Shown: positions 47,545-64,000 of the stretch, one piece after another
How positions within the stretch are numbered: the stretch's first letter is position 1
How the letters are laid out: each line of letters opens with the position of its first letter
Origin: Aquisphaera giovannonii
GTDB lineage: Bacteria > Planctomycetota > Planctomycetia > Isosphaerales > Isosphaeraceae
DNA length: 64,000 nt
Assembly (NCBI RefSeq): GCF_008087625.1
Contig: NZ_CP042997.1
Location: forward strand, 2,046,001-2,110,000
Direction of reading: 5' to 3'
The notes under the pieces: model-generated
What the model was told of the DNA's origin: nothing
Databases searched by the model: none
Seen by the model: the letters and a program-made list of their open reading frames with translations, nothing else
Program-made: the position numbers and the translations under genes

Positions 47545-47720
47545 TCCGGGCCCGGATCCCGAGCGCAACGCCCCGTCCGTTCCCGTCCCCACACGTCGTC
47601 CGATGCAGGTCCTTAACGCCTCGTCCACATCTCCCATCGAACACATCTCCCCGAATCGGTCTCGACCGCTCGTGCGGCAGGGCGCAAACCCCCTGCCCAG
47701 GGATGAAAGGAGTCAGTCAC

Positions 47721-49937
47721 GTGAAAGCGGAGGCTTCGCGTCGAAACTGGATTCGGAAGGGGGCCTGGGCCGTCCTCGCCGCCCTGGTACCGGCATCCGA
47801 GTCCCCGGCCATCGCCGACGGCGATCGGGCCCAGGGGCAGGCGTTCTCGCCGATCGCGGCCGCGTCGCCGAGCGACCCGGGGGCGGCTGCATCGGGCTCC
47901 GGCCGCCGCACCACGGTCCCGCCGCCTCGCCCGTTCAGCGAGGTGAAGCGGCGAGGGCTCCTCGGGCGTACGGACGATGCTCGCAGGTCCGCCCCGATCC
48001 CGCCGCCTCGCATCTTCGTGGCCGACAAGCCCGCGGTCACGGCCTCGGCGTCGGTCTCGCCGCCCGAAGTCCCGGCCCCCGCGCCGGCCGATGCCCCGGC
48101 CCCCGCGCCGGCCGTTGCCCCGGCCCCGGCTACCGCGGCTGCCGCGGTTCCTGCCCTGGCCGAGGCCCCGGCCCCCGCGCCGCCCGCGGCCCCTCCGGTC
48201 GAGACACAACCCGTGCTCGCCGCGAGCCCGATGGCGGACCCCATCGAAGTCGGGCCGTCGGCCGCCGAGCGGCCGCGGGAACTGGAAGCCGCGTTGAAGT
48301 CGCTCGGAGCGAGGTCGACGTCCCCGAGCGATTCGGGGCCCGCCCCCGACTCCGCGGCGGCGAAGCTCGACGAGCCCGTCGGGGAGCCCGCGCGACCCGT
48401 CCCGTCGAGCATCGACCAGTCACCTGCGCCGTCCCCTGCGGCCGATGACGCCTCGCCAGCGGCCACGCCCGCTCCCGCCCTCGCCGTGCCGGAACTTGAT
48501 GCCCGACCCGCGATCGAGCCCGCCGCCGAGGCGAAGCCGGAGCCCGAGCACGTCGAGGCGAAGCCCGCCGTCGATGCCAAGCCGGCGCCGGTGCCCGCCG
48601 AGGCCCCCGCTGCTCCGGCCGCCGCGTCCGAGCCCGCCGGGCAGCAGACCCCGAAGCCCTCACCCGCGCCGGTGCCGGCCAGGGCCGTCGCGGCGTCCGC
48701 GGCCACCTCGACCGGGCCAGGGCCCGACGCCCCCACGAGCCCCGCGGGAGCGGCGACGCCCGCCGACGCCGCCGCCGCCCTCGTCCTGAAGCAGCCGGAT
48801 GCGGCGAAGACGGCCGACGACGAAGTCGAGAAGGCCGCCTGCACGACCTGCGGCAGCCATCACGGCATCTCCGACGGCCATGTCTTCACCGGTTGTGCCA
48901 ACGGCAAGTGCATCCCGGGCCGCCCGCCGTGCAACCCCCCGGCCAATGAATGCGATACGATCGTCGGGGCCTTCTGCCAGAGGCTCTACGAATGCCTCTG
49001 CTGCCCCGATCCTTGCTACAAGCCCGTCTGGGAGCCCGCGGCCAACGCGTCGTTCTTCGCGGACTACGCACGGCCCCGCACCGTGACGCGGCTCCGCTAC
49101 GACAACCTCGAGGCCATGAGCCGCCCGGACCGCAACCAGTTCATGATGAACCAGGTGAATCCCAGGGGCCGAGGCGTCTTCAATCCCATGGCGCGGCTCC
49201 AGCAGGTCTCCGTCTACCAGGAGGCGGCGGGCGAGCGCGGCAGCCTGTTCGTGGAGTACCCTTACCGCCAGCTCAACTCGAACTGGGCCCCCACCCAGGC
49301 CGGCTTCGGCGACGTCAACTTCGGCATCAAGTCGCTCTGGTTCGACTGCGAGATGCTCCAGGTCGCCTTCCAGCTGCGCACCTACATGCCCAGCGGCAAC
49401 TTCCAGGACAACCTGGGGACCGGCCAGTTCGCCATCGACCCTTCGATCCTGACGTCCTTGAAGCTCGGGCCGACGACCTTCTTCCAGGGGCAGTTCGGCA
49501 ACTGGACGCCCCTGGGCGGACCCTCGAGCGCGACCCTCAACATCCCGGCGCGGATGCCGGGCACGGGGGCACTGACGTCCATCAACGGCGGCAAGCAGGC
49601 GGGCGGCATCTTCTACTGGTTCATGAGCCTGAACCAGGTGCTGTGGTACTACACGCCGGACAGCCCGCTGACCGCGACCCTCGAGATGGACGGCTGGTCG
49701 TTCGAGAACGGGGGCTACACCACGGCCGTGCGGCCGAAGATCGGGTCGGGAGGGACCGGTGCGCTGACGCGATACGGCCGGGCGGACGGCGGCGGGGTGT
49801 CGTACTTCAACATCGGCCCGGGCCTCCGGCAGTCGATCTGCAACCGGGTGGACTTCGGCGGCGCCATCACCTGGGCGACCGACACGGCCCACTGGGCCCA
49901 GCCCTGGTTCCGCTTCGAGGTCCGCTTCCTCTTCTGA
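47721..49937 (+). CDS. Outer-membrane beta-barrel protein with Pro/Ala stalk and Cys-rich head
   Basis: 738 residues from GTG 47721, chosen for AAAGGAG at 47706-47712; in-frame ATG 47703 overlaps that site. A weak signal sequence W-A-V-L-A-A-L-V-P-A-S is near residue 15. Residues about 80-370 are a Pro/Ala-rich stalk with short tandem repeats (P-A-P-A-D-A-P-A-P-A-P-A-V-A). Residues 373-434 carry 14 or more Cys (A-C-T-T-C, G-C-A-N-G-K-C, Y-E-C-L-C-C-P-D-P-C). Residues 440-738 alternate polar and aromatic residues and end in E-V-R-F-L-F, the terminal Phe typical of outer-membrane barrels. It may link the outer membrane to the envelope. Confidence 0.75.
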   Translation: MKAEASRRNWIRKGAWAVLAALVPASESPAIADGDRAQGQAFSPIAAASPSDPGAAASGSGRRTTVPPPRPFSEVKRRGLLGRTDDARRSAPIPPPRIFVADKPAVTASASVSPPEVPAPAPADAPAPAPAVAPAPATAAAAVPALAEAPAPAPPAAPPVETQPVLAASPMADPIEVGPSAAERPRELEAALKSLGARSTSPSDSGPAPDSAAAKLDEPVGEPARPVPSSIDQSPAPSPAADDASPAATPAPALAVPELDARPAIEPAAEAKPEPEHVEAKPAVDAKPAPVPAEAPAAPAAASEPAGQQTPKPSPAPVPARAVAASAATSTGPGPDAPTSPAGAATPADAAAALVLKQPDAAKTADDEVEKAACTTCGSHHGISDGHVFTGCANGKCIPGRPPCNPPANECDTIVGAFCQRLYECLCCPDPCYKPVWEPAANASFFADYARPRTVTRLRYDNLEAMSRPDRNQFMMNQVNPRGRGVFNPMARLQQVSVYQEAAGERGSLFVEYPYRQLNSNWAPTQAGFGDVNFGIKSLWFDCEMLQVAFQLRTYMPSGNFQDNLGTGQFAIDPSILTSLKLGPTTFFQGQFGNWTPLGGPSSATLNIPARMPGTGALTSINGGKQAGGIFYWFMSLNQVLWYYTPDSPLTATLEMDGWSFENGGYTTAVRPKIGSGGTGALTRYGRADGGGVSYFNIGPGLRQSICNRVDFGGAITWATDTAHWAQPWFRFEVRFLF
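48070..48200 (+). repeat. Pro/Ala-coding tandem repeats
   Basis: Short GCCCCGGCCCCCGC-type units repeated in the stalk of the barrel protein gene, coding P-A-P-A motifs. Low-complexity coding repeats, prone to length change. Confidence 0.5.
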
Positions 49938-49994: not shown

Positions 49995-50094
49995 TCGCGT
50001 TGGCCCTTCGGTGCGAGCGGCACGGCGATGATTTTCATGGCGGGCGGACCCCATCCCGCGCCGCAGAAAATGGCCGGCGGGGCCTGTTTTCCGG

Positions 50095-50124
50095 TTCAGC
50101 AATCCGGCCCCGGCTCGTTATGAT
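50095..50124 (+). promoter_or_regulatory. Possible promoter of the VWA-caspase gene
   Basis: TATGAT (50119-50124) with weak TTCAGC (50095-50100) 18 bases upstream; transcript would begin about 45 bases before ATG 50176. Confidence 0.4.
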
Positions 50125-50175
50125 CCATGGATCGAGCGAGGCATTTCCGCTCCGGCAACTCGAGGTACCACGTTC

Positions 50176-53100
50176 ATGGCGGACGAGCGCGCCCGGCCCT
50201 CCCGGCCTTCCTGGAAGCGAGCAGGGGGCGATCCCCGGGCCGTCGAGCCGTCGTCCCACGCCTGGTCCCGGCGGAGCGTCTCCTCGGTCGCCCGCCCCGA
50301 TGCCCCCCGAACGAAGACCTGGAAGGTGGCCGGCGTGGTCGCGGCCCTGGCCGCCTGCATCGCGCTGATCCTGTTCCTGATCCTCGTCTTCCGCCCGCCC
50401 CGCCCCGCCGCCGTCGTGCTGGTGGGGGCCGACTACGCGGGCAACCTGGCCGTCCCGCACAACCTGCTGGGCTGGAAGGGGCTCCAGGGGCTGGAGGCGG
50501 TATCGAGGACGCCGCCCCGCTTCTCGCTCTTCCCGCCCCCGATGCTGCAGCTGGTGAGGGGCGGGGGCACGCCGCTGAACCTGGCCGAGGACTGGAAGGC
50601 CCTGGTCGACGACCTGAAGGTGTCCGCCAAGGGCTACCGGACGCTCCTGATCGCGGTCGCGCTCCACGGCGGCACGACCGCGGACTCGGCCTACCTGCTC
50701 CCCGGCAAGGCCACGGGGCGGGAGGCGGATCGGCTCGACCTGCTGCAGGTCATCCGGTCGATGGACGAGCTGCCGCAGGAGCAGAACAAGGTCCTGGTCC
50801 TCGAGGGCGCCCTCGTGCCGGCGGACTGGCGGCTCGGGATGCTCTACAACGACTTCGGCCGCCGGCTCAGGGACCTCGAGCCCGAGATCCGGAAGGTGAA
50901 GAACCTCTGGGTGCTCAGCGGCTGCGACGTGGACCAGCAATGCTGGGCGTCGGAGGGCATGGGCCGCACCGCGTTCTTCCACTACATCATCGAGGCCCTG
51001 AGCGGCGAGGCGGCCGGCCACGGCATGCGGCTGAACCTCCAGACGCTCCACGACTACGTCCGCCGCAAGGTCCGCAACTGGGCCTGGAACGCGCGGGGGG
51101 CCATCCAGGAGCCGGTACTCCTGCCGAGGACGGCGGACACGGCGGGGAGCGGCGGCGAGCCACCTCGCCGCCCGGCGGCCGGCGTCCACCTCGCCACGGC
51201 GGAGGCGGCCCCCGCCTCCGAGACCCCGCCGGAGCTCGACCGGACGATGCTGTCGGAGCGATGGCGGGCCTTCCACGAGCTGGACGGCCTGCTGCCCCAC
51301 CCCTCCACCTACTCGCCCCGGCGATGGCGCGAATACCGCGCGACCCTGGTCCGGCTCGAAGAGCTGGCCCGCGCGGGCGCCTCGGCCCAGCAGCTCGCGC
51401 CGCTGGACGAGCGGCTGGGCGTCCTGGGCGCCCGGCTCCGCGCCGACAGGTCCTTCGCGAAGATCACGGAGTCGCCCCAGCACAACCTCGTCATGGGCGT
51501 GGTCCAGGGGGCGGTGATCGACCCCAGGCGGGGGAGCGAGCCCGAATTCAGCCGGCTGTGGAGCCCGCCCCCGGGCACCGACCCGTCGAAGGTGTGGGAC
51601 GAGCTCCGGGGCAAGTTCCCGGACGGCGACGCCGAGCCGGCCCAGCCGCTCCGCTGCCGGGTCGACGACTACCTGCTTCAGCGGGCCGCCGCCGACCCGC
51701 AGCATGACCTCGCGACCGCGGTCGACCGGCTGAGGCAGCAGACGCGCGGCACGCAGTATCCCCAGCCGGTCGAGGCCCACTTCGCGGCCATGCTGGAGCG
51801 GTCCCTCCGCGGCGAGCGGGCCCGCCCCCAGGCCTTCTGGCCGCGCGTCCGGCGGGCGCTCCTGGTGCGTCGCCTCGCGGAGCGGGTGACGCTCGGCATC
51901 CCGGAGGGCCGGCCCGGCTATGCCGCCAGCGAGCGGCTCGCCCCCTGGCTCCGCGAGCTCGTGGACCGGGCCGACGACCAGCGTCGCCTCGGCGAGGACC
52001 AGCTCCTCGCCTCGGACGAGGCGGCCTGGGCCCGCGCGGATCAGTCCCTGGCCGCCGCGGAGCAGCTCTACCGCGAGGCGTCCTCGCGCGGCGAGCTGGT
52101 CCGCAAGGCGATCCTCGCCCGCGACCTCGCCCTCTCGACGCTGCCGGACTACGCCCGGTGGATGGGGCGTCGCCGGCCGGAGGACCTCGGCAAGGACGAC
52201 CTCGCCGCGGTGGTCCTGGAGCTCTGGGACCAGGTGCATCGCCTCTCCGATCGCCTGGAGGCGCCGGGCGAGGAATCGGCGGCCTCGCTCGAGAAGCTCC
52301 AGAAGGGACTCTCCACGGGCCTGGAGGCGCTCGGCAGGCGGTTCCGCCAGCACGCCGGCGGCCTGGCGGGTGATCGTCGCCCGGAGGAGTGCGAGCCCAC
52401 CGCGTCCGCGGCGGCCGTGCCGTTCGCCGACGCCGCGGAGGACTCGCTCCGCGGGGCCCTCTGGGACCGACTGGACGCCATCCGGAAGCATGACCGGAAG
52501 CTCTCCGAGGGCGGCGATACCCCCGAGCCGGCGGCGGCCGACGCCGACCGCGTCGCCGACTCCCTCCGCCGCCGGAGCCGCCTCCAGGGACGCATGGCGA
52601 TGGCGACGCTCGGGCGCGACCGGTTCGACGCGCCGGCGTTCAAGGATGCCCCCCCGTTCGATCAGGTCCTCAAGCGGATCGAGAGCGCCTTCGAGGAGGG
52701 CGGCCAGCAGGCCTGGTGGCGGTCCATCGCCGAGGCCGGGGACGCGATCGGGCTGCGATGGCGGGGCCTGGGCCCCGAGGTCGAGGGCCTGACGAAGGAG
52801 GAAGGTCCCGACGCCGACCCGGCGCGGCTCCTGACCAGGCTCTCCCTCGCCGAGCGCCTCGATCGCCTGATCGACGGGGGCGAGGAGCCGCTCCCGGACT
52901 CCCGGCCCGAGGCCGCGTCGCTCGGCCGCGGGCTGCGGATCCGCGGCCTCCTGCTCTGGCTGGCCGAGCGAGCGTGGCGAGACCACTGGTTCGACGAGGA
53001 TCCGAAGGCCGTCTCCCCCTATTACCGCACGGTCGCCACGCGGCTGGTCGGCGACGCGGCCCGGATCGCCGCGAAGGGGCCCGACCTCGCGCGCATCCGC

Positions 53101-55338
53101 CAGCTCGTGGCCAGGAACGATCGCCTGAAGCTCGAGGGCCCTTCGAAGATCATCATGACGACCGAGCCGGCCGCCGACGCCACCTACCGGATCGCGGCGG
53201 AGGGGGATCCGGAGTCCATCCCCCCCGGCCTGCCCGTGATCCGGCCGCGCGTCGAGCCCGAGCTCGGGCTCCTCGACGGCGCGGCGGGGTACCGCCTGGC
53301 CCCCTGGCGGACCGGCGGCGACGTCGCCCGCTTCTCCGTGTCCTCGGCGACGATCCGCTCCGCGGAGTCCGACGAGTCCATGGACCGGCCCTTCATCCGG
53401 ACCTCGCCGCTCCTGATCGAGGGCGTCTTCCGCGGCCAGCTCTTCACCAAGCGAACGGACGTGGAGCTGCACCCCGTCCCCGACGAGGTCTCGGTCAACC
53501 CCGCCCCGGTCGACCCCCGGGCCAGCCTGGCGGTCCGGGCCGACGGCGAGCTGCTCGCCCGCTTCGGCGCCGGCAGCGGGTCCATCGCCATCGTGCTCGA
53601 CATGTCCGGGAGCATGAGGGAGCCGACCCCCTCCGGGCGTTCGAAGCTGGCCGAGGCGAAGATCGCCCTCGGCCAGGTCCTGGAGATCATCCCCGCGGGG
53701 ACCACCGTCAGCCTCTGGACCTTCAGCCAGATCGGCGCCAAGGAAGCCGACCTGTTCGAGGACGACCCGAGGCACCTGGCCCCGGAGAAGACCATCCAGC
53801 GCCTCAGGGAGCCGGTGCGATGGGACCGGGCGGAGCTCCCCGGGCTGGTCGCCCGGCTGGAGGCGTACCGGCCGTTCTGCGACACCCCCCTCGTGGAGGC
53901 CATGTGGAGGGCGGCCGCGACCGACCTCGGGAAGGCCCAGGGGCTGAAGACGCTGCTCGTGCTCACCGACGGGAATGACACCGAATTCCAGAAGCATCGC
54001 GAGTTCAACCCCTTGAAGGACGGCAAGCCGACCTACAAGGACATCCCGGAGTTCATCCGCACCGCCTTCGACCCGACCGGCGTGCAGATCAATATGATCT
54101 ACTTCGACACCGCGAGCGACGGCGGCAAGCAGCTCGAGGAGGCCAGGAAGAACTTCGAGGAGCCCCTGAGGGGCCTCGACCGGCCCGGCACGTTCACGGC
54201 GGTGAAGGACGTGGATCAGCTGCTCGCGGGCCTGAAGAAGGGGATCCGCCAGGAGCTGGCCTGCCGCATCCGCGACGAGGCCGGCAAGCCGGTGTCCGAG
54301 GAGCTCCTGGGCGTCACGCGGGTCGGCGAGCCTGACCGGTGGTGGCCCGACGGGCTGGACGCCGGCCTCTACACCCTCAGCGTGCTCGCCGACCACACCT
54401 ACGAGCACCAGGTGGAGCTGAAGAAGGGCGAACGCCTGCTCGTCAGGCTCGTGGACGCCGGCGGGAAGATCGACTTCCGTCGCGACCTCTACAGCGGCGA
54501 CTTCGCCGACCGGGCCGCGGAGGATCGCTCGGAATGGCGGGCGAGCGGCCTGGCGACCGTCATCCCGGCCCAGCAGGCCGGGGACCGGATCCAGGTCCTG
54601 GCGTCCCTGGAGCAGACGGCGATGAGGGTGCCCGACCCGGATCCCATCCGTCAGGTCCACCCCAGGATGAGCTGGATGCGGCTCGCGGCGCAGGGCATCC
54701 CCAATCCCTCGGGCGCCTTCTCGACCCGGTGGCGCGACCTGGGCGAGTATCCCGCGCCGGCCTGGGTGGCCGACGTGCCGCGATGGCCGCGGGATCCCGC
54801 CGGCGCCGGGCCCGCGCAGCCCGTGCTCCGGATCTGGTGGCTGGCGCCCGGCCTGAAGGACCGGTCCCTCCCGGCGATCGCGCTGGACGGCGACCTGCCG
54901 CGCCGGCTCCGGCTCGCCGACGGCGAGGAGGTGGTGCTCGAGGGCCTGGGGATCGAAAGCCACAAGGTCGAGGTGAGCCCGGGCAGCCGCGTCGATAGGC
55001 GCTGCCTCGCGATCCGAATCGCGTACCCCAAGGATCAGCTCCACATCGTCGACCCCAGGAGCCTGCTCGCCGCGGGCATCGGCACCGAGGGCGCCGAGCT
55101 CCGGATCTTCTCCCGGGCCCGTCGCTCCACCGCGCTCCTCTGGCCGGTCAGCGAGACGAGCCTCGACGCGCTCAAGTCCGTCGGCCTGTACCCGGTGGAC
55201 GAGCTCCTCAAGCTGGCCGAGAAGCAGCAGACCGCCGCCGCGATCACGCTGCCGATCCCTCGGCGAGGGAACCTGCCGGAGCCCCCGCCGCCGCTGCGAG
55301 ACCCGCGCAGGCCCCTGGGGCCCCCGGCGCCGGGATGA
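50176..55338 (+). CDS. Giant membrane protein with caspase-like head and VWA domain
   Basis: 1,720 residues. A basic N-terminus and one membrane helix at about 51-73 are followed by a caspase-like domain: L-I-A-V-A-L-H-G-G-T-T-A-D-S-A-Y-L-L-P (His164) and N-L-W-V-L-S-G-C-D-V-D-Q-Q-C-W (Cys250), the order of the p20 catalytic dyad; W-x-S-E-G and F-F-H-Y-I-I-E-A-L follow as in bacterial metacaspases. A long helical region (about 350-900) is rich in Arg, Leu and Glu. A VWA domain occupies about 1136-1330 with the MIDAS D-M-S-G-S (D1142, S1144, S1146) and L-V-L-T-D-G-N-D-T. The rest to the end is mixed beta-rich. VWA domains bind metal and protein partners. Whether the caspase dyad is active is unknown. 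A same-strand partner gene follows. Confidence 0.82.
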   Translation: MADERARPSRPSWKRAGGDPRAVEPSSHAWSRRSVSSVARPDAPRTKTWKVAGVVAALAACIALILFLILVFRPPRPAAVVLVGADYAGNLAVPHNLLGWKGLQGLEAVSRTPPRFSLFPPPMLQLVRGGGTPLNLAEDWKALVDDLKVSAKGYRTLLIAVALHGGTTADSAYLLPGKATGREADRLDLLQVIRSMDELPQEQNKVLVLEGALVPADWRLGMLYNDFGRRLRDLEPEIRKVKNLWVLSGCDVDQQCWASEGMGRTAFFHYIIEALSGEAAGHGMRLNLQTLHDYVRRKVRNWAWNARGAIQEPVLLPRTADTAGSGGEPPRRPAAGVHLATAEAAPASETPPELDRTMLSERWRAFHELDGLLPHPSTYSPRRWREYRATLVRLEELARAGASAQQLAPLDERLGVLGARLRADRSFAKITESPQHNLVMGVVQGAVIDPRRGSEPEFSRLWSPPPGTDPSKVWDELRGKFPDGDAEPAQPLRCRVDDYLLQRAAADPQHDLATAVDRLRQQTRGTQYPQPVEAHFAAMLERSLRGERARPQAFWPRVRRALLVRRLAERVTLGIPEGRPGYAASERLAPWLRELVDRADDQRRLGEDQLLASDEAAWARADQSLAAAEQLYREASSRGELVRKAILARDLALSTLPDYARWMGRRRPEDLGKDDLAAVVLELWDQVHRLSDRLEAPGEESAASLEKLQKGLSTGLEALGRRFRQHAGGLAGDRRPEECEPTASAAAVPFADAAEDSLRGALWDRLDAIRKHDRKLSEGGDTPEPAAADADRVADSLRRRSRLQGRMAMATLGRDRFDAPAFKDAPPFDQVLKRIESAFEEGGQQAWWRSIAEAGDAIGLRWRGLGPEVEGLTKEEGPDADPARLLTRLSLAERLDRLIDGGEEPLPDSRPEAASLGRGLRIRGLLLWLAERAWRDHWFDEDPKAVSPYYRTVATRLVGDAARIAAKGPDLARIRQLVARNDRLKLEGPSKIIMTTEPAADATYRIAAEGDPESIPPGLPVIRPRVEPELGLLDGAAGYRLAPWRTGGDVARFSVSSATIRSAESDESMDRPFIRTSPLLIEGVFRGQLFTKRTDVELHPVPDEVSVNPAPVDPRASLAVRADGELLARFGAGSGSIAIVLDMSGSMREPTPSGRSKLAEAKIALGQVLEIIPAGTTVSLWTFSQIGAKEADLFEDDPRHLAPEKTIQRLREPVRWDRAELPGLVARLEAYRPFCDTPLVEAMWRAAATDLGKAQGLKTLLVLTDGNDTEFQKHREFNPLKDGKPTYKDIPEFIRTAFDPTGVQINMIYFDTASDGGKQLEEARKNFEEPLRGLDRPGTFTAVKDVDQLLAGLKKGIRQELACRIRDEAGKPVSEELLGVTRVGEPDRWWPDGLDAGLYTLSVLADHTYEHQVELKKGERLLVRLVDAGGKIDFRRDLYSGDFADRAAEDRSEWRASGLATVIPAQQAGDRIQVLASLEQTAMRVPDPDPIRQVHPRMSWMRLAAQGIPNPSGAFSTRWRDLGEYPAPAWVADVPRWPRDPAGAGPAQPVLRIWWLAPGLKDRSLPAIALDGDLPRRLRLADGEEVVLEGLGIESHKVEVSPGSRVDRRCLAIRIAYPKDQLHIVDPRSLLAAGIGTEGAELRIFSRARRSTALLWPVSETSLDALKSVGLYPVDELLKLAEKQQTAAAITLPIPRRGNLPEPPPPLRDPRRPLGPPAPG

Positions 55339-55437
55339 CCGGCCCTCGGCCCGAGCGTCCCCGCGGACGAGGCCCGACGAAGTGACCCGAGACGGAGCCC
55401 ATCGGATGAGGCGGACCGCCGCCGCAGGAGCGAGACG

Positions 55438-58400
55438 ATGACCAGGCCTTCCACCACGGGGCGCGGCCGATGGCGGGACGCGGGAGCCGCGACCCGCACG
55501 CGGCCGTCGGGGCCCACGAAAGCAGGCAAGGGGCTGCTGGCGGCCCTGGTCTCCGCGATCGTGCTCGCGACGGTCGGATTCCTCGGATTCCTCATCTACA
55601 TCTTCGTCTTCGGCCCGGAAAATCGGACGTCCCTCATCCCCTTCCTGGTCACCTCGTATCGGAGGGATCAGATCTCGCCGGTCCCGGGGGCCGCGGCCGA
55701 GCGGCGGGCGATGGCCGCGACGGGCCTCCAGCTTCGCCACGATCCCCTGGACGCCGACGGCGACCTCACCCTGGAGAACTTCGCCACCAAGCTGAACAAC
55801 CTCCGCGGCGAGAAGCCCGCGGTGCCGATCGTGGCCTACGTTTCCGCGTACGCGATGGTGGACGAAGCGGGCCGGGTCCAGATCCTCGCCAGCCGGTCCG
55901 ACCCGTTCTCGGCCGACTCCATGCTCCCGCTCGGCCAGGTGCTCAGGGCCCTTCGCGAGTGCCCCTCTCGCCAGAAGCTGCTGATCCTGGACATCATGAA
56001 GCCCACGAGCGACCCGCTGGACCTCGGCGGGACCCCCGACGGGGTCGCCGACGCGGTCCCCCTGGAGGTCGCCGCGGCCGCCGTGGGGAAGGAGCAGGGG
56101 GGCACCCCGCCGCTCGTGCTCGTCGCCTGCTCGCCCGGCGAGACGGGGCTCTGGTCGGAGCACCTCGGCCGGTCGGTATTCGGCCATTTCTTCGCCGGGG
56201 CGTTCGCGGACACGAAGGCGGACCTGGACGGGGGCGGCACCCTCTCCGCCTCCGAGCTCGAGAAGTACCTCGCGGAGAGGGTGAATGCCTACGCGCGCAA
56301 GACCCGAGGCGTCACCCAGCGCCCGTACCTGATCGGGGACGGCGACTTCTCGATCGGTGCGATCGTCCCGGCGGCGGCATCGGCCCCGGTCGCCTCCCGT
56401 GCGGCGGACAAGGACGCACCCGCCGAGGAGGCCGCGGGCGGCGACCCGGCGAAGTCCGCCGAGAAGGGAAAGCCCGCGGCGACGGCGGTCGCGAAGAAGG
56501 ACGAAGGCTCGGCGGCCGCCCCATCGGACGGCCTCGCCTACCCCGATTGGCTGAAGAAGGGCTGGGAGCTGAGGCGGGACTGGTGGGCCGACCCGACGAC
56601 CGGCAGGTTCGCCGGCGCGGCGTCCCCTCGGGCCTTCCGCAGGCTCGGGGCGATCCTCCTCCGCGCCGAGGCCCGGTGGCGATCCGGCGACGACCCGGCC
56701 GCCGTCGCGGCCGATCTCCAGGCGGGCGTGGCGCCCCTCGTCGAGGCGATGAACCACGACCGGGCCGTCGACGGCCCCTCGGCCATCCGCTCGGTCGGGC
56801 AGGCCGTGGCGGGCGGTTGGAAGCCGGACGCCGCGCTGGTCTCCAGGCTCCGCGTGCTCCTGGACGACCTCCGGAACTCGGACCAGCCCGCCGATGCGGA
56901 TGCCGCGGCCGCCCGCAAGAAGGCGGCGGGCGAGCTCGCCGCCGCGATCAAGGCCAGGCCGAGGCCGTCCCTGGAGCTGGCCGGGATCCTGATCGAGGCC
57001 ACGTCCGGCGTCCGCCTCATCCCCGACACGTTCCGGCTCCTCGACGGCCTGATCCGGGACAGCGGCGCGAAGGCGGACATCGTGGAGCTGAGGCTCTTCC
57101 AGGACCTCGCGGTGCGGGCCACGGCCCCTCCGGCCGAGTGGCCCGACGAGGCCGCCGAGGCCGCCAGGCTCGCCTGGGATTCGCTCTGCCTCGCCGAGCG
57201 GGCCGCCCACCATCCCTCGGCGTTCCCCTGGACCGCCGGCCTCCTCGACCACGCCGACCGCGCCCGCCACGAGGCCCGCGTGCTGCTCCTCGCCGACGTC
57301 CGGGGATTCGACTCCTGGCGGGGCGTGCAGGAGGCCTGGAGCAGGGCGGCGGAGGAGCTGAGGAAGGCGGACGACGCCCAGACGCTCATCGAGGAGGCGC
57401 GGACCGAGCTCGACCGGTCGCGGACGCTCCTGTCGGATGACCTCGCGTTCCTCCAGGCGTCGGGCCGGCCCGGGCTGGAGACGGCCTGGCACGAGGCGGC
57501 GAGGGCGTCGGCCGAGGTGGCCCACATCCTGGGGCCGGCGCGCGACGGCAAGGCCGACCCGGGCGACGGAGCCGGGCGTCCCCCGATCGAGACGCTGCTG
57601 AACGAGCTGGAGCCGGCGCTCCGCGCGCTCCGGGCCGGCGACGAGGCGCTGCTGCGGCCCTTCACCGACGAGGCGATCCGCGAGGCAATCGCCCGCACCG
57701 AGGCGGCGAGGCCCGACCCGAGGGCGGCGGCGGAGATCGACGCCCTGCTCGCCAGCCCCTTGCCGCCGCCCGACGCCAGGCCGCGGCTGATCGCCGCCTG
57801 CCGGGCGCTCGATGCCAGGCTCGCGGCGTCGGCCCAGGCCTCCATCCCGGACGCGGCGGAGGCCGCCGAGGCCGGCAGCGCCGCCCGGCTGGAGCAGGCT
57901 CGCCCGCTGGTCGTCCGCCGGGCCAGGCGGCTCCAGACGCTCCTCTCCCTGCTGGGCGAGGAGGCGCTCGCCAGCAACCTCTGCGCGGGCGTCGAGCTGG
58001 AGCCGGAGATCCGGTCGATGGCGGGCGGCTCGGCCTCGACCGCATCGACGCCGGGGGAGGTCATCGTCAAGCTCTGGGGCAGCCACGCCCGGATAGCCGC
58101 GGCGGCCTGGTGCCGGCTGAATGCCCTTCTGGAACGGTCGGAGCGGGGCGACGACGCCGCGGGCTGGATCGCCCCGCCGTTCCTGCCGGTCGTGACCGCG
58201 AACCCGCGGTACGCGGCCAGGCAGGCCGAGTCGCAGCGACACGGCCGCTGGCTCGCCGCGCGATACGTCCAGGAGGAGCGCGACCTCCACGAGCGCATGG
58301 CCCCCGCCCGATTCTACGAGGAGGCCGCGGCGGAATGCCAGGGCCACGAGGACGCGGCCGCGCCGGCGATCGAGCTCGGCCTCGCCTCCGCCGCGACCCC

Positions 58401-60477
58401 GACGCTGTCCTCGTCGGGCGGCTTGAGCGTCGGCGTCAGGATCGCTCTCATCGGCGGGCCGGGTGCCACCGCCCAGGCGAGGGTCGCCGTCCATACGCCC
58501 GGCGACGGCCGCCTGAAAGTCCAGATGGCCCAGGAGGAGCCGGTCGATTTGAGCTCGCTGAGCCCCGCGGTCGTCAACCTCGAGCTGCGATGGGACGAGG
58601 ACGGCGGGCCGGTCGACCGGGAGCCCCCGCCCGGATTCCTGTTCGAGGCCACCCTGGCCGACGGCCGGGCGTTCCACCTCAAGGTCCCCATTCGCATCGA
58701 GTCCGGCCGGATGCTCCCCTCGTTCGCCGTCGTCCCGAAGGACGGCGACGCCGTCGGGGTGCCGCTCGACCCGTTCCGCCTGAGGACGCTCCCCGGCCGG
58801 CAGCCGTTCCAGCTCTCGCTCCGGAACCCTTCGCCTCGGGCTCGCGAGGTGAAGGTGGAGCTCATGGCCGGCGACGCCGTCCTGGCGAGCACCGGCGAGA
58901 AGCCGATCCCGCTGCCCGGGAACTCGACGGTCCCGGTCAAGGCCCTCGCACCGGCCTCGGCCGGGATGACGCCCCCCAAGGAGAACGAGCCGCTCATCGA
59001 GGCTCCCGCCGCACTCCGCCTGCGGATGAGCGAGCCCGCCGCGGGCGGCGGCGGACTCGTCGTGGTGCAACCGATCCGCCCGGAGATCGCCAACCCGGCC
59101 GACTACGTCGGCGTCATGCTGGCCCAGTTCACGCCGGAGTTCCAGGGCCAGCCGAATCAACTCAAGCTGGTCTTCCGCGCCCTGCCGGGGATGACCGGCC
59201 CGCCCTGCCAGGTCGAGCTCGTCCTCCCCGCCGACCGGGCCCTGTTCCCCGCCCTCCTCAGCCCCGAGACGGCGGGCAAGCGTGCCGACCTGCTCAGGAA
59301 AGGCGACGACCTCACGCTCGTCGCCGAGGGCCTCCGGCTCGATCCCGGCGTGGCCCAGCAGAGGGGCAGCTTCCAGGTCAACCTCGACGGGGTGAAGAGG
59401 GCGCTCTGGTATCAGGCGCAGTTCAACAACGCCGGCGGCGTCGAACGCGCGGTCGTCGAGGCCGCCCCGCCGCGCGTCCGGTTCCGCACCGAGCGGACCG
59501 TGAAGCCGAACGAGTCCACCGACCTCCGGGTCTTCTACCAGGTGGACAAGGCGCCGGCGAACTCCCGGCTAACCTTCGCGCTGGGCCGTCCCGCCGCCGG
59601 GGGCTTCGCGGCCGACAAGGAGGCCGAGCCGCGGCCTCCCCGGCGCAGCCACGTCGGCCTCGCGGTCGGCGACGGCGGCGTGCTGCTCTTCGAGGCCGCG
59701 GTCGAGGACTGGGCCGACGCGTATCGCCTGAACATCCGAGGCAAGCGTCTGGCCGTCGCGCGGCTGCTCGACCCGGCCGGCCGGGAGCTCGACCGCTACG
59801 AGGAGGAGCTCGTCCTCGACGATCAGCCGCCGGCAATCAGGGAGATCGCGGTCCCCCCGGAGGTTGAGGACGGGGGCGCACCGTTCGACGCCCGGATCGT
59901 CGTGACGCCGCCCGTCTCGGGCGTCAGGGAGGTCGTGTACGTCGCGGGGCCGAAGGCGCTCGACGACGCGGAATTCGCGAAGGCCCACGCCGAGAAGAAG
60001 ACGGCGCAGGCCAGGCGCTCCGGGGGCGACCGCGAATGGATCGCCCCGGTATCAATCCCGAAGGACGCGACGGGCCGCCTCTTCATCACGGCGAGGGCGG
60101 AGAGCGGCGTCGGGCTGACGGGGCTCCGCGGCGACGTCGTCAAGATCCGCCCCCGCCCCGCCCCGGCCGACGACATGGCCGCCAAGAAGAAGGACCAGCC
60201 GCCCGCCCCGGGGGCCATCGAGGGGACGGTCATCGAGGCCGGGTTGCCGCAGCCGAACCTGCGGGTCCTCCTGATGAACGAGAAGGAGAAGGACCCGGCG
60301 AAGGCCGTGGTGAAGAACACAACGACCGACGACGACGGCAAGTTCAAGCTCACCGATATCGCGCCGGGCGAATACTACATCTACAGCATGAACGACGTCT
60401 CCAAGCGTTACTACTACAAGCCGGTCAGCGTACCGCCGGGCCAGACCGCGACGCTCAAGATGGAGCTCCTTCGCTAA
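55438..60477 (+). CDS. Giant membrane protein with degenerate caspase-like head and carboxypeptidase-regulatory-like tail
   Basis: 1,679 residues. Basic N-terminus and one membrane helix at about 33-58, as in the preceding protein. A caspase-like segment at about 100-300 keeps the order of the family: V-A-Y-V-S-A-Y-A-M-V-D-E replaces the S-G-H-G of the catalytic His, while L-V-L-V-A-C-S-P-G-E keeps a Cys at 231; D-L-D-G-G-G-T-L-S-A-S-E-L recalls the acidic loop of caspase-like proteins. The middle 900 residues are helical and Ala/Arg/Glu-rich, then beta-rich domains; residues about 1593-1679 form a carboxypeptidase-regulatory-like beta domain with D-D-D-G-K-F-K-L-T-D-I-A-P-G-E-Y. Probably a pseudo-protease paired with the previous gene (98-base gap). 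Confidence 0.78.
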   Translation: MTRPSTTGRGRWRDAGAATRTRPSGPTKAGKGLLAALVSAIVLATVGFLGFLIYIFVFGPENRTSLIPFLVTSYRRDQISPVPGAAAERRAMAATGLQLRHDPLDADGDLTLENFATKLNNLRGEKPAVPIVAYVSAYAMVDEAGRVQILASRSDPFSADSMLPLGQVLRALRECPSRQKLLILDIMKPTSDPLDLGGTPDGVADAVPLEVAAAAVGKEQGGTPPLVLVACSPGETGLWSEHLGRSVFGHFFAGAFADTKADLDGGGTLSASELEKYLAERVNAYARKTRGVTQRPYLIGDGDFSIGAIVPAAASAPVASRAADKDAPAEEAAGGDPAKSAEKGKPAATAVAKKDEGSAAAPSDGLAYPDWLKKGWELRRDWWADPTTGRFAGAASPRAFRRLGAILLRAEARWRSGDDPAAVAADLQAGVAPLVEAMNHDRAVDGPSAIRSVGQAVAGGWKPDAALVSRLRVLLDDLRNSDQPADADAAAARKKAAGELAAAIKARPRPSLELAGILIEATSGVRLIPDTFRLLDGLIRDSGAKADIVELRLFQDLAVRATAPPAEWPDEAAEAARLAWDSLCLAERAAHHPSAFPWTAGLLDHADRARHEARVLLLADVRGFDSWRGVQEAWSRAAEELRKADDAQTLIEEARTELDRSRTLLSDDLAFLQASGRPGLETAWHEAARASAEVAHILGPARDGKADPGDGAGRPPIETLLNELEPALRALRAGDEALLRPFTDEAIREAIARTEAARPDPRAAAEIDALLASPLPPPDARPRLIAACRALDARLAASAQASIPDAAEAAEAGSAARLEQARPLVVRRARRLQTLLSLLGEEALASNLCAGVELEPEIRSMAGGSASTASTPGEVIVKLWGSHARIAAAAWCRLNALLERSERGDDAAGWIAPPFLPVVTANPRYAARQAESQRHGRWLAARYVQEERDLHERMAPARFYEEAAAECQGHEDAAAPAIELGLASAATPTLSSSGGLSVGVRIALIGGPGATAQARVAVHTPGDGRLKVQMAQEEPVDLSSLSPAVVNLELRWDEDGGPVDREPPPGFLFEATLADGRAFHLKVPIRIESGRMLPSFAVVPKDGDAVGVPLDPFRLRTLPGRQPFQLSLRNPSPRAREVKVELMAGDAVLASTGEKPIPLPGNSTVPVKALAPASAGMTPPKENEPLIEAPAALRLRMSEPAAGGGGLVVVQPIRPEIANPADYVGVMLAQFTPEFQGQPNQLKLVFRALPGMTGPPCQVELVLPADRALFPALLSPETAGKRADLLRKGDDLTLVAEGLRLDPGVAQQRGSFQVNLDGVKRALWYQAQFNNAGGVERAVVEAAPPRVRFRTERTVKPNESTDLRVFYQVDKAPANSRLTFALGRPAAGGFAADKEAEPRPPRRSHVGLAVGDGGVLLFEAAVEDWADAYRLNIRGKRLAVARLLDPAGRELDRYEEELVLDDQPPAIREIAVPPEVEDGGAPFDARIVVTPPVSGVREVVYVAGPKALDDAEFAKAHAEKKTAQARRSGGDREWIAPVSIPKDATGRLFITARAESGVGLTGLRGDVVKIRPRPAPADDMAAKKKDQPPAPGAIEGTVIEAGLPQPNLRVLLMNEKEKDPAKAVVKNTTTDDDGKFKLTDIAPGEYYIYSMNDVSKRYYYKPVSVPPGQTATLKMELLR

Positions 60478-60731
60478 CGGCCGCGGCCGCAGAGGCCGGT
60501 CGTCCCCCCCCGTAGGAGGCGGCTGCCGGGCCGCGGCGCCGGAGTCGGCTCGCGTGTTCGGTGGTTGGATCCGACTCCTATCGGGGCCGGGCAGAGGGAC
60601 TTGCGGGCGCTGGAAGCACCGGTCGGGGTGCATGAGCGACCCGCGGGGCGTGGATGGTCCCCGCAGGATCATCGAGGCGAAGCGGGCCCCGGATCGTGCG
60701 CTCGCGCCGGCGTCGAGGGACTTCCGCGATC
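60478..60731. other. Short convergent gap
   Basis: About 250 bases between the caspase-like gene and tssM, which end facing each other. It holds an NotI-like GC palindrome (CGGCCGCGGCCG) but no T-run terminator or leftover TssM coding sequence. Confidence 0.45.
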
Positions 60732-62312
60732 CTAGCTTCCCCGGCCGGCGAACCGCATGACGAGGAGGCCGACGATCCCCAGGACGAGGACGCCCGCGAC
60801 GGCCATGAAGATCTTCCGGACGACGCCGGCGGTCCGCGCGAAGGTCGCGTCCTCGGCCATGGCCTGCTCGGTCCAGGAGACGAGGTCCTGCTCCTGGACC
60901 AGGCGGTTCAGGACGCCGGAGGCGAACGCACGCTCCGCGTCGTCCCCCTCGCCGGTGGCGGCGAAGTAGCAGCCGCCGAACATCAGCTTCTCGTCGGCGA
61001 CCGCGGGGATGCAGTCGCGCACCAGCCTGGCCAGCCGCTCCCGACGCTCGCGGATCTTGCCGAGGAACTGGAAGAGGGCCTGGTTGCCGCGGAGCACCTC
61101 CGCGATCTCGTCGATGCTCCGGTTCGATTCGACGCGGAAGAGGGAGTAGACCATCGTGCCGAAGAGGCTGTTGATCACCCATTCGACCGAGCCCTCCACC
61201 TTCGCCGGCACCTCCTCCTCGCGGACGTCCGGGACGAGCGGGAAGCGCTGTCCCATCCGGTTGTTGAGCTGGGAGGCGGGCAGGCGGCCCACCAGGTCGG
61301 CGAAGCCGGGCACGCGTTCCAGGTCGGCGATCAGGAACAGGATGGGGCAGCGCATCCGGAAGCTGGCGAAGCTCTCCTGCAGGTCCTGGCGGCAGGCCGC
61401 GGCGATTTCCTCCGGGCGCGAGCGGGGGTCGGCCGAGGAGATCGGCAGGACGACGAGCACGCCGTTCACCGGGCAGAACCCCAGCCGGTCGCGCCGGATC
61501 AGTCGGCAGAGGTGGCGGAGCCGGGCGAGGTACTTCTCGCGGTCGATGTTACGGACCGGCCGGCCGGCGGCCCGGCCCGCGTCGATCTCCTTGCGGGCGT
61601 CCTCCATGGCGCCCTCGAGGCCGCCGGTGGCCATCCCCACGCCCATGGTCTTGAACGGGTCCGGCTGTTCTTCCATCATCGTGGCGAGGACCGCCCCCCC
61701 GCCGCCGCTCTCCTGGCCGATGAACGAGGGATCCTGCTGGCCCAGCAGCGAGGCGCCGGGGCAGGTCACCCAGATGCTGTCGCGGTCCGCCGTCACGTGG
61801 AGCGGCTCCAGCTTGTCGGTCGGCACCTGCTTGACCCGGGCCTTGATGCCCGCCGCCTTGAAGAGGGCCTCCTCGGAGCCGGAGCTCCAGCCCAGGACGA
61901 GGTACAGCGGCGTGGCGTCGAGCCGGATCTCGGCGCGGGAGAGGGCCTCCATGGCCTGGGCCCACGCCCGGTCGATGTCCGGGAAGTCCGAGGCCTCCTC
62001 CTGGACCTCCATGCTGAGGATCCGGTAGAGCCACCATCCCAGCCAGAGCAGGACGTACAGGCTCAGGAAGAAGAGCGGCAGCCAGTTCCGGGCGAGGGCG
62101 GGGTACTGAGGGATCAGGTTCTGGAGCCCGACCGTCGGGAGCCGGTTGATCGCCCCCAGGAGGGCCAGGACGATCGCCAGCAGGACGATGCGGCCGGACC
62201 AGCGCGCGGCGGGGGCCGCCTTCTCCGCGGCCTCCTGCGAGGAGAACATCGGGAAGACGAGTCCCCAGAGCCAGCACGCCCATTCCCAGGGCTTGGCGAT
62301 GATCTTGATCAT
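60732..62312 (-). CDS. tssM: Short TssM/IcmF-like T6SS membrane protein
   Basis: 526 residues, less than half of a normal TssM (about 1,100). Two N-terminal membrane helices (about 41-58 and 78-98) bracket a short loop, then a cytoplasmic IcmF-type domain: a degenerate NTP site Y-L-V-L-G-W-S-S-G-S-E-E-A-L-F (no Walker A Lys), N-G-V-L-V-V-L-P-I, P-I-L-F-L-I-A-D-L-E-R-V-P-G-F (the family's K-C-D-L-L position here A-D-L-E) and a helical region to residue 490. The third membrane helix is at about 503-522 and the protein stops 4 residues later, so the large periplasmic domain that contacts TssJ is missing. It lies 16 bases after tssL. It would anchor the inner-membrane complex. Confidence 0.8.
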   Translation of the reverse strand: MIKIIAKPWEWACWLWGLVFPMFSSQEAAEKAAPAARWSGRIVLLAIVLALLGAINRLPTVGLQNLIPQYPALARNWLPLFFLSLYVLLWLGWWLYRILSMEVQEEASDFPDIDRAWAQAMEALSRAEIRLDATPLYLVLGWSSGSEEALFKAAGIKARVKQVPTDKLEPLHVTADRDSIWVTCPGASLLGQQDPSFIGQESGGGGAVLATMMEEQPDPFKTMGVGMATGGLEGAMEDARKEIDAGRAAGRPVRNIDREKYLARLRHLCRLIRRDRLGFCPVNGVLVVLPISSADPRSRPEEIAAACRQDLQESFASFRMRCPILFLIADLERVPGFADLVGRLPASQLNNRMGQRFPLVPDVREEEVPAKVEGSVEWVINSLFGTMVYSLFRVESNRSIDEIAEVLRGNQALFQFLGKIRERRERLARLVRDCIPAVADEKLMFGGCYFAATGEGDDAERAFASGVLNRLVQEQDLVSWTEQAMAEDATFARTAGVVRKIFMAVAGVLVLGIVGLLVMRFAGRGS

Positions 62313-62328
62313 GGTGCCCTCGGCGCCC

Positions 62329-62991
62329 TCAGCGACCCAGGAAGCCCAGGGCGCTCAGCAGGATCAGGAAGACGATGAGCAGGGCCAGGCAGAGGCCCCC
62401 GTAGACGGCGATGGCCCGGCCCAGGGCCGCCCGGCCCGCGAGCGGCTCGACGTTCGTCCCGGCGCCCAGGTCGCGGGGGGCGGGCCAGGGCGAGGTCCGC
62501 GTGACCTGCGGGCGCATCTCCTCCATCAGCTCCCGGACCTTCGCCGGGTTCTCCAGGTACTTCCCGCGGAAGCCCAGCGCCGTGCAGAGGAAGAACGCCT
62601 CCAGGGCGTCCGGCCCGGGCGGGGTCGCGACCCGCGGGGCGTTCGGGCGCCGCAGGGCGATCTCGGCCTGGTCCCAGAACTTCCAGGCCCGGTCGCGGCT
62701 GCCGTAGAGGGCCAGCTCCAGGATCCGCTCCTTCCAGGCGTCGGCCCACGGGCTGTACACGATGAACAGCTCGTCGATCCAGCAGGTCAGCGCGTAGCGG
62801 GCCCCCAGGAAGACCGAGCCGTCGCCCGCGTAGTCGGCCAGCCGGCGCACCTCGGTCTCGGATCGCAGGCGATCCATGAGCTGACGCTGCTCGGCCTCGA
62901 GGTCGAGGTCCTCCCCCTCGTCGAGCCGGTCCTTCAGGTCCAGGGCGTAGGTCATCACCGGGAAGACCAGTTCGCTGAGCTGTGGGGTCAT
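62329..62991 (-). CDS. tssL: TssL/DotU-like T6SS membrane protein
   Basis: 220 residues from ATG 62991. The cytoplasmic helical bundle has the DotU pattern: F-P-V-M-T-Y-A-L near the N-terminus, Y-A-L-T-C-W-I-D-E-L-F-I (the conserved C-x-x-D-E), W-K-E-R-I-L-E-L-A-L-Y-G, F-F-L-C-T-A-L-G-F-R-G-K-Y, then a single membrane helix at about 193-217 (V-Y-G-G-L-C-L-A-L-L-I-V-F-L-I). No peptidoglycan-binding OmpA domain is fused. TssL binds TssM and the baseplate TssK at the inner membrane. Gene order tssK-tssL-tssM matches T6SS clusters. Confidence 0.9.
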   Translation of the reverse strand: MTPQLSELVFPVMTYALDLKDRLDEGEDLDLEAEQRQLMDRLRSETEVRRLADYAGDGSVFLGARYALTCWIDELFIVYSPWADAWKERILELALYGSRDRAWKFWDQAEIALRRPNAPRVATPPGPDALEAFFLCTALGFRGKYLENPAKVRELMEEMRPQVTRTSPWPAPRDLGAGTNVEPLAGRAALGRAIAVYGGLCLALLIVFLILLSALGFLGR

Positions 62992-63079: not shown

Positions 63080-64000
63080 TCAGGGCTTCCTCGCCGCCCC
63101 CGCGCCGAGCATGAACAGGGCGAAGCGGAAGGGCATCTCCGAGGCGAGCCTCAGGCTGATGGTCTCCTGGCCGTCGATGTTACCGACAATCTTGCTCTCG
63201 TTGAACCGGATGGCCAGCGTCAGGGACCGTTCCACGTACTGCCATTCGTTCTGCTGCTGCTCGCGGTTGATCTCGAAGTAGATGAGGCCCTTGTCGCGGG
63301 GGAGGGCCTGCGGCAGCGACGGCGCGGGGACGTGGCTGAACTTCAGGCCGAGGTCGCCCAGCCGGTAGATCGTCTCGATGCGGTCGGAGCTCCCCACCTT
63401 CATGTCGATGCCGCGCGGGCCCATGAGCTCCACGCAGGCGTCGGCGTCGAGCGGGCTGCGGACGCCGAAGTAGAGGTGGACCGACTGGTCCAGCCAGCCC
63501 CGCTCCAGCGAGACCTGCATCCTCAGCCCGTTGCCCACGAACGGGCGCTCCTGGTAGTCGGGCTCCGGCACGATCGAGAGCAGGTCGTCGAGGTAGTTCT
63601 TGATCCGGTGGAAGCAGCCGCCGAGGTCGTCGTGGTCGTACCGCGGGATCGCCGGCGTGCGCCGGGTCTGGCTGAAGACCGAGAGCTGGCCGACCAGCCG
63701 GCAGAGCTCGAGGTAGGCCGGGAGCGGGTGGATCCCCTCCAGGAAGGCGAGGTTCGTCAGCGTCGCGTACGCCTCGTTGAGCTCGCGGAGCTGGGAGAAG
63801 ATCAGCACGTCCCCCGGCGCGGTGCTCTCCAGGCTCAGGCCCCGCGAGACCGCCTGGTTCGCGAGCTTCTCGACCTTCCGGCCGATCCGGTCGTAGACCA
63901 CCTGGAGGATCTCCACCGACAGCTCGTGCCAGGCGTCGCAGGCCAGCAGCGGCGGGATGTAGCCGGCGTCGAGCTGCGGCGTCGCCTCGGCCCGCTCGGA
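63080..64000 (-). CDS. tssK: TssK T6SS baseplate subunit, C-terminal part (cut by window end)
   Basis: The frame is open from base 64000 to 63080, giving the last 306 residues of a protein of about 440. D-A-G-Y-I-P-P-L-L-A near the visible start is a conserved TssK segment, as are L-R-E-L-N-E-A-Y-A-T-L-T-N-L, H-P-L-P-A-Y-L-E-L-C-R-L-V-G-Q-L, D-L-G-G-C-F-H-R-I-K-N-Y-L and E-R-S-L-T-L-A-I-R near the C-terminus. TssK is a trimeric baseplate adaptor that joins the sheath and baseplate to TssL/TssM. Upstream T6SS genes (tssB/C, hcp, clpV) must lie outside the window, if present. Confidence 0.88.
   Translation of the reverse strand, partial: SERAEATPQLDAGYIPPLLACDAWHELSVEILQVVYDRIGRKVEKLANQAVSRGLSLESTAPGDVLIFSQLRELNEAYATLTNLAFLEGIHPLPAYLELCRLVGQLSVFSQTRRTPAIPRYDHDDLGGCFHRIKNYLDDLLSIVPEPDYQERPFVGNGLRMQVSLERGWLDQSVHLYFGVRSPLDADACVELMGPRGIDMKVGSSDRIETIYRLGDLGLKFSHVPAPSLPQALPRDKGLIYFEINREQQQNEWQYVERSLTLAIRFNESKIVGNIDGQETISLRLASEMPFRFALFMLGAGAARKP

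What the first reader, a model, noticed from the sequence alone, without database searches (positions are those of the whole stretch)
50176..60477. Pair of giant membrane proteins with caspase-like heads, one with VWA and one with a CarboxypepD-reg-like tail
Both start with a basic tail, a single membrane helix and a caspase-like domain, share gene order and length (1,720 and 1,679 residues), and differ in the middle. The first keeps a His164/Cys250 pair; in the second the His motif S-G-H-G is lost (S-A-Y-A) while a Cys remains, as in pseudo-proteases. They look like a duplicated and diverged pair that may form a heteromeric envelope complex. I do not know a described system with this architecture.
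Basis: partly seen in the sequence, partly recalled or inferred. Interest (0 to 1): 0.7.

Follow-up and report, generated by a model that had tools for sequence, protein, structure and literature searches.

The report
Pseudo-caspase pair in planctomycete T6SS
Two giant inner-membrane proteins with dead caspase-like heads always come as a pair beside a type VI secretion ("molecular spear gun") locus whose usual envelope-spanning part is missing, so they probably form a previously undescribed planctomycete replacement for it.

Summary
The two giant genes are real: A, 50176-55338, 1720 aa; B, 55438-60477, 1679 aa. AlphaFold models of both heads are caspase folds (Z 19.4 each). A and B are ancient paralogues that share the membrane helix, caspase head and helical body; A ends in a VWA domain, B in Ig-like domains and a CarboxypepD_reg domain. 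Both heads look catalytically dead.

The convergent genes next door encode TssM-N, TssL and TssK of a type VI secretion system (T6SS). This TssM stops right after its third membrane helix. The canonical TssM periplasmic domain and TssJ were found in 0 of 45 genomes of the order. In class Planctomycetia, giants were detected in 10 of 12 TssK+ genomes and 0 of 15 TssK- genomes; outside the class some T6SSs keep full-length TssM and none has giants.

Best explanation: A and B are the trans-envelope part of a planctomycete-specific T6SS membrane complex (inferred, not shown). Closest precedent: Bacteroidota TssNQOPR, which also has a VWA component. No description was found in the open-access library.

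The parts
50176..55338 (+). Protein A, 1720 aa: basic tail, one TM helix, pseudo-caspase head, helical body, beta domain, VWA domain, C-terminal region
   Evidence: ORF; homologues 66-18% identical; model
50335..50391 (+). A transmembrane helix, residues 54-72
   Evidence: hydropathy
50398..51195 (+). A caspase-fold head, residues 75-340; His164 kept, catalytic Cys position is Ala ('LEGA')
   Evidence: VIA Z 19.4 to caspase-7; alignment
51238..53115 (+). A helical body, about residues 355-980, shared with B
   Evidence: model; hhalign A54-958 with B38-913
53575..54210 (+). A VWA domain, about residues 1134-1345, MIDAS DMSGS and TDG conserved
   Evidence: Pfam VWA_2 1138-1201, E 5.1e-5, below the gathering cut-off; motif
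55438..60477 (+). Protein B, 1679 aa: basic tail, one TM helix, pseudo-caspase head, helical body, Ig-like domains, CarboxypepD_reg domain
   Evidence: ORF; homologues; model
55555..55611 (+). B transmembrane helix, residues 40-58
   Evidence: hydropathy
55612..56367 (+). B caspase-fold head, about residues 59-310; neither catalytic residue kept
   Evidence: VIA Z 19.4 to procaspase-6; alignment
60217..60468 (+). B C-terminal CarboxypepD_reg domain, residues 1594-1677
   Evidence: Pfam E 2.6e-8
60732..62312 (-). Short TssM: IcmF-related N-terminal domain only, 526 aa, ends after TM3 (501-519)
   Evidence: PF14331 E 1.8e-18; TM positions
62329..62991 (-). TssL (DotU), 220 aa
   Evidence: PF09850 E 1e-18
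63080..64000 (-). TssK (VasE); the window cuts it, full gene L005:14081-15484 or longer
   Evidence: PF05936 E 3.5e-75
46363..47544 (+). HEAT-repeat envelope protein recurring in T6SS loci; homologues look like lipoproteins (start uncertain)
   Evidence: Pfam HEAT; recurrence
48231..49937 (+). Putative outer-membrane beta-barrel protein recurring in T6SS loci (start uncertain, frame open from 47541)
   Evidence: homologues beside T6SS genes; one homologue hits PF13557

Best explanation
A and B are structural subunits of the T6SS membrane complex of Planctomycetia. Shown by sequence: both are predicted single-pass inner-membrane proteins with inactive caspase-fold heads, linked by genomic position and co-occurrence to T6SS, in a lineage where TssM has lost its whole periplasmic domain and TssJ is not found. 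Inferred: the basic tail lies in the cytoplasm near TssK, TssL and the TssM N-domain, and the roughly 1600-residue bodies cross the periplasm as a heteromeric ring or cage. The pseudo-caspase heads act as protein-protein assembly modules, as dimerising caspase folds can. The VWA domain of A and the Ig-like and CarboxypepD_reg domains of B would contact peptidoglycan or outer-membrane partners (candidates: the HEAT lipoprotein-like and barrel proteins encoded just upstream). They thus replace the missing TssM periplasmic domain and TssJ as the channel through which the spike is fired.
For: Neighbouring TssM-N, TssL and TssK. Short TssM of 459-565 aa in the Planctomycetia loci examined, ending at or just after the last TM helix, against 1147 aa with periplasmic IcmF domains in a relative outside the class. 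IcmF_C and TssJ each in 0 of 45 genomes of the order, E. coli control positive. In the order, all 13 genomes with an A match are TssK+ (24 of 45 are; p 3e-5). In class Planctomycetia giants in 10 of 12 TssK+ and 0 of 15 TssK- genomes (p 8e-6), and no sampled genome has both giants and a canonical TssM periplasmic domain. Loci with giant-TssM-TssL-TssK-giant order (L141) or giant-TssM-giant order (L085, L151). The rest of the machine (TssA, B, C, E, F, G, Hcp-like, ClpV) is at a second locus of this genome, with one TssC and one TssK copy. Ancient A and B groups. Literature precedents: Bacteroidota TssNQOPR, with a VWA domain in TssR and one TM plus PKD domains in TssP (PMC10781749); Acinetobacter TsmK, a degenerate enzyme fold used in the membrane complex (PMC10564176).
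Against: No interaction, localisation or knockout data. No sequence similarity of A or B to TssM or TssJ structures was found. Two TssK+ genomes of the class (G143, G168) show no giant, and in the order 11 of 24 TssK+ genomes gave no A match in the single-sequence search (at least one of these, G037, carries a divergent single giant). In sister species G001 the pair is not beside TssKLM, and in G013 no T6SS gene lies beside the pair. Single-giant loci show that a pair is not always needed. Absence of TssJ rests on one Pfam model. A periplasmic regulator would give the same neighbourhood.
Confidence: 0.62

Rival explanations
1. A and B are periplasmic sensors or regulators of T6SS firing, comparable in role to the PpkA-TagQRST threonine phosphorylation pathway, rather than part of the channel.
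For: VWA, Ig-like and CarboxypepD_reg domains are binding domains; canonical PpkA carries a periplasmic VWA (own knowledge); homologues of a kinase-FGE fusion and a caspase-WD40 protein lie in the genome's second T6SS locus.
Against: That kinase-FGE module already exists separately; A and B have no kinase or other output domain, only short cytoplasmic tails; it leaves the missing periplasmic part of TssM unexplained; size and strict pairing fit a scaffold better.
Confidence: 0.2
2. A is an active envelope protease (caspase-like) and B its inactive regulatory partner, processing T6SS or envelope proteins.
For: His164-Gly invariant in the eight close homologues; two Blastopirellula-type A heads keep HG plus DSC; caspase-8 with c-FLIP shows an active-inactive caspase pair (own knowledge).
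Against: The catalytic Cys position is Ala here and not Cys in 18 of 20 A heads examined; Cys250 is on another strand and not conserved.
Confidence: 0.07
3. The proteins are secreted T6SS effectors or surface adhesins that merely sit in T6SS loci.
For: VgrG and PAAR genes are close in several loci; VWA and Ig-like domains occur in adhesins.
Against: N-terminal membrane anchor with a conserved cytoplasmic tail; no toxin domain or variable C-terminus; no adjacent immunity gene pattern; neighbourhood is the TssKLM trio; loss tracks loss of TssK.
Confidence: 0.05
4. The T6SS neighbourhood is coincidental and the pair serves another envelope function.
For: In G001, G013 and L142 no tss gene is immediately adjacent.
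Against: T6SS genes flank the giants in most other loci across several families; giants were not seen in TssK- genomes.
Confidence: 0.03

Closest known systems
Canonical T6SS membrane complex TssJLM (T6SS-i)
   Same: TssL (DotU), TssM N-terminal domain and TssK are recognisable homologues beside the pair
   Different: TssM has no periplasmic domain, TssJ not found; two giant pseudo-caspase proteins instead
Bacteroidota T6SS-iii membrane complex TssNQOPR (PMC10781749)
   Same: Lineage-specific replacement of the trans-envelope part; one component has a VWA domain (TssR), another has one TM helix and PKD (Ig-like) domains (TssP)
   Different: Bacteroidota lack TssL and TssM altogether; TssR is a lipoprotein of about 790 aa; no caspase fold was reported; homology not tested
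Acinetobacter T6SS membrane complex with TsmK (PMC10564176)
   Same: Absence of TssJ compensated by a lineage-specific membrane protein derived from a dead enzyme fold
   Different: Full-length TssM is kept; TsmK is a ketoacyl-synthase-like cytoplasmic domain
Prokaryotic caspase homologues (Peptidase C14; PMC3501461)
   Same: Caspase fold; loss of Cys or His was already noted as common in Planctomycetes (64% conserved)
   Different: Head is a small part of a 1700-aa anchored protein without dyad and tied to T6SS; no such architecture found in that survey's passages read here
Rhodopirellula baltica T6SS (PMC2660368, PMC5394234)
   Same: A T6SS in Planctomycetes has been on record since 2009
   Different: Its membrane complex and these giant proteins were not discussed in the passages found

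Membership tests
T6SS-i membrane complex (TssJLM) | TssL/DotU present | tested here: met
   PF09850 E 1e-18 in the adjacent gene
T6SS-i membrane complex (TssJLM) | TssM cytoplasmic IcmF-N domain present | tested here: met
   PF14331 E 1.8e-18
T6SS-i membrane complex (TssJLM) | TssM periplasmic domain (PF06761, PF06744) | tested here: not met
   PF06744 0 of 45 order genomes; PF06744 and PF06761 in no sampled class genome; TssM ends at TM3
T6SS-i membrane complex (TssJLM) | TssJ/SciN lipoprotein | tested here: not met
   PF12790 0 of 45, E. coli control positive; a very divergent TssJ is not excluded
T6SS as a whole | Sheath, baseplate, tube and ClpV in the genome | tested here: met
   TssC E 1.8e-133 and TssA, B, E, F, G, Hcp-like, ClpV genes at C1:3162-3184k
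Peptidase C14 (caspase/metacaspase) | Caspase fold | tested here: met
   Z 19.4 for A and for B
Peptidase C14 (caspase/metacaspase) | Catalytic His-Cys dyad | tested here: not met
   A: His kept, Cys position Ala; B: both lost
Bacteroidota TssNQOPR complex | TssL and TssM absent | tested here: not met
   TssL and TssM-N are present
Bacteroidota TssNQOPR complex | Homology of A or B to TssR or TssP | not tested
   Only the domain types were compared, from the paper
T6SS membrane-complex subunit (function) | Physical complex with TssL/TssM and need for firing | not testable with these tools
   needs pull-down and knockout

The most novel reading that the evidence does not exclude
Planctomycetia carry a new T6SS subtype whose trans-envelope channel is a hetero-oligomer of two pseudo-caspase giants (A with VWA, B with Ig-like and CarboxypepD_reg domains), while TssM is reduced to an inner-membrane and cytoplasmic adaptor; a dead protease fold has been recruited as a structural module of an injection machine.
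Probability: 0.5. Interest if true: 0.82.

Novelty: new variant of a known kind. Interest (0 to 1): 0.7.

Why it matters
How T6SSs cross the envelope without TssJ and the TssM periplasmic domain is open outside Proteobacteria and Bacteroidota. This gives named candidate genes, a genome-wide pattern and testable predictions for a whole bacterial class, and a role for some of the many inactive planctomycete caspase homologues as structural parts rather than death proteases.

Tried and rejected
Sequence search of the heads against PDB chains gave no caspase; only fold comparison did. Whole-protein profiles against PDB showed no TssM or TssJ relative. Top Foldseek hits Raptor and similar were long, poorly superposed alignments (rmsd about 36 A) and were set aside. 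The helical bodies were not searched alone, so nothing is claimed about their fold being new. Cys250 as catalytic residue rejected. The 3041-aa antisense frame at 50035-59160 and the 574-aa + frame at 60654-62378 rejected as GC-rich shadow frames of conserved genes. Active-site recovery in G033 (LDCE) considered: Cys is one position off, so not counted. The 742-aa protein in G143/G168 considered as a short giant: no match to the A or B profiles; its sequence looks TolC-like. Conserved W-R/K motif in tails: 18 of 20 A and 14 of 16 B tails, but 11.4 and 6.4 expected after shuffling the W- and R-rich tails, so only a lead. Many phylum-wide A-profile matches outside the class were VWA-only or ordinary caspase proteins and were not counted as giants.

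Full report
What is there. The window is G000:C1:2046001-2110000 of a 10.5 Mb genome. Named relatives carrying the pair are Singulisphaera, Gemmataceae, Blastopirellula marina and other Planctomycetes. The two reading frames are at the stated places: A 50176-55338 (1720 aa) and B 55438-60477 (1679 aa), 99 bases apart, same strand. They are conserved end to end at 66% and 62% identity in a sister species and down to 17-18% in distant ones.

Caspase heads. AlphaFold2 on A residues 58-1115 with 13 sequences gave pLDDT 83.5 and pTM 0.82. On B residues 50-1245 with 16 sequences it gave 76.8 and 0.70. VIA-align puts both heads on caspases: A Z 19.4, rmsd 2.5 A, 197 residues (4hq0_B); B Z 19.4, rmsd 3.0 A, 211 residues (4n5d_A). 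Sequence profiles agree weakly: Peptidase_C14 in 5 of 13 A heads, best E 2.9e-5, and 1 of 11 B heads, E 0.005.

The heads are probably inactive. In A, His164-Gly lies at the end of strand 3, as in caspases. The strand-4 end, where caspases read LDAC, reads LEGA in A (LDAT in several homologues). Cys250 follows strand 5 and is Ser in five of eight close homologues. B has lost His (SAYA) and Cys (LDIM). Of 20 A heads only the two Blastopirellula-type proteins (L076, L146) keep HG plus DSC, so an active ancestor is plausible (inference).

Duplication. Profiles of A and B match over 807 columns (A 54-958 with B 38-913), probability 99.9, E 1.3e-36. In a tree of 45 cores, A, B and a third set of nine single giants each need one change; the single giants form a group with support 100, but the A and B branches themselves have only 66-68. 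The tails differ: VWA with MIDAS residues in A; Ig-like domains and CarboxypepD_reg in B. Divergent partners in other families keep the same assignment.

Convergent to B lie TssM-N (PF14331 1.8e-18), TssL (PF09850 1e-18) and TssK (PF05936 3.5e-75). TssK continues beyond the window end. The genome holds one TssK and one TssC hit. TssC lies in a second locus at C1:3162-3184k with ClpV, TssA, TssB, an Hcp-like gene, TssE, TssF and TssG; no TssK, TssL or TssM was seen there. So the window locus is the membrane half of this genome's T6SS. In relatives the pair lies beside TssKLM, VgrG, PAAR, TssA, ClpV or TssEFG. Two loci have giant-TssM-giant order (L085, L151), and one has giant-TssM-TssL-TssK-giant (L141).

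The missing part. TssM in the Planctomycetia loci examined is 459-565 aa and ends at or just after its last TM helix. In a TssK+ genome outside the class it is 1147 aa with PF06761 and IcmF_C after TM3. IcmF_C and TssJ are absent from all 45 genomes of the order, with E. coli positive as control.

Co-occurrence. In the order, 13 genomes have A matches and all are among the 24 TssK+ genomes of 45 (Fisher p 3e-5). In 195 genomes of the phylum, the class has 12 TssK+ genomes, of which 10 have giants; none of its 15 TssK- genomes does (p 8e-6). Outside the class 24 are TssK+: none has a giant, and 10 have a canonical TssM periplasmic domain. No genome has both. Limits: the samples are related by descent, so p values overstate independence; 14 of the 24 outside genomes have neither.

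Mechanism. Shown: predicted anchored single-pass topology, caspase folds without the dyad, pairing, T6SS linkage, complementary distribution. Inferred: A and B cross the periplasm and replace the TssM periplasmic domain and TssJ; the heads oligomerise; the tails dock to TssK/TssL/TssM-N. TssJ itself has a transthyretin fold (PMC3213119); CarboxypepD_reg is also transthyretin-like (own knowledge), which makes B's C-terminus a possible functional counterpart, but no homology was shown. Alternatives are listed with their weights.

Known or new. T6SS in Planctomycetes is known since 2009 (PMC2660368; PMC5394234). Lineage-specific membrane complexes are known in Bacteroidota (TssNQOPR, VWA in TssR; PMC10781749) and Acinetobacter (pseudo-enzyme TsmK; PMC10564176). 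Searches of an open-access library found no description of caspase-fold T6SS components; subscription papers were not searched. I therefore rate it a new variant of a known kind.

Noticed in passing
G000:C1:3162000-3184266 (L159, L160): Second T6SS locus holds an 826-aa homologue of a Ser/Thr kinase-FGE-sulfatase fusion and a 1476-aa homologue of a caspase-WD40 protein next to TssG; it resembles a fused PpkA-TagR regulatory module.
   Followed up: partly
window 46363-49937: HEAT-repeat protein (lipobox-like start in homologues of G033 and G038) and a barrel-like protein recur in T6SS loci; candidate outer-membrane partners of the complex.
   Followed up: partly
L057, L058, L062, L155 and L059-L061, L063, L064: A third group of single giants (1244-1413 aa) with the shared core but no VWA or CarboxypepD_reg tail, several beside TssKLM.
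   Followed up: partly
L141, L148, L151, L152 and the window N-termini: Cytoplasmic tails of A and B carry recurring W-R/K motifs (often WRxG), up to three per tail; a possible docking motif.
   Followed up: partly
L065:5415-6377 and L067:6564-7535: A gene (CorA-like Mg transporter by Pfam in L065) sits between A and B in two genomes.
   Followed up: partly
phylum sample outside the class: 14 of 24 TssK+ genomes show neither canonical TssM periplasmic domains nor giants; further unknown membrane complexes may exist.
   Followed up: no
L138, L140 (G143, G168): TssK and TssL beside VgrG but no TssM or giant found; a TolC-like gene lies next to them.
   Followed up: partly
G000:C1:5651126-5652052 (L002, L006): A protein (869 aa as called) with a VWA region 38% identical to that of A, near ExbD- and MotA-like genes.
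   Followed up: no
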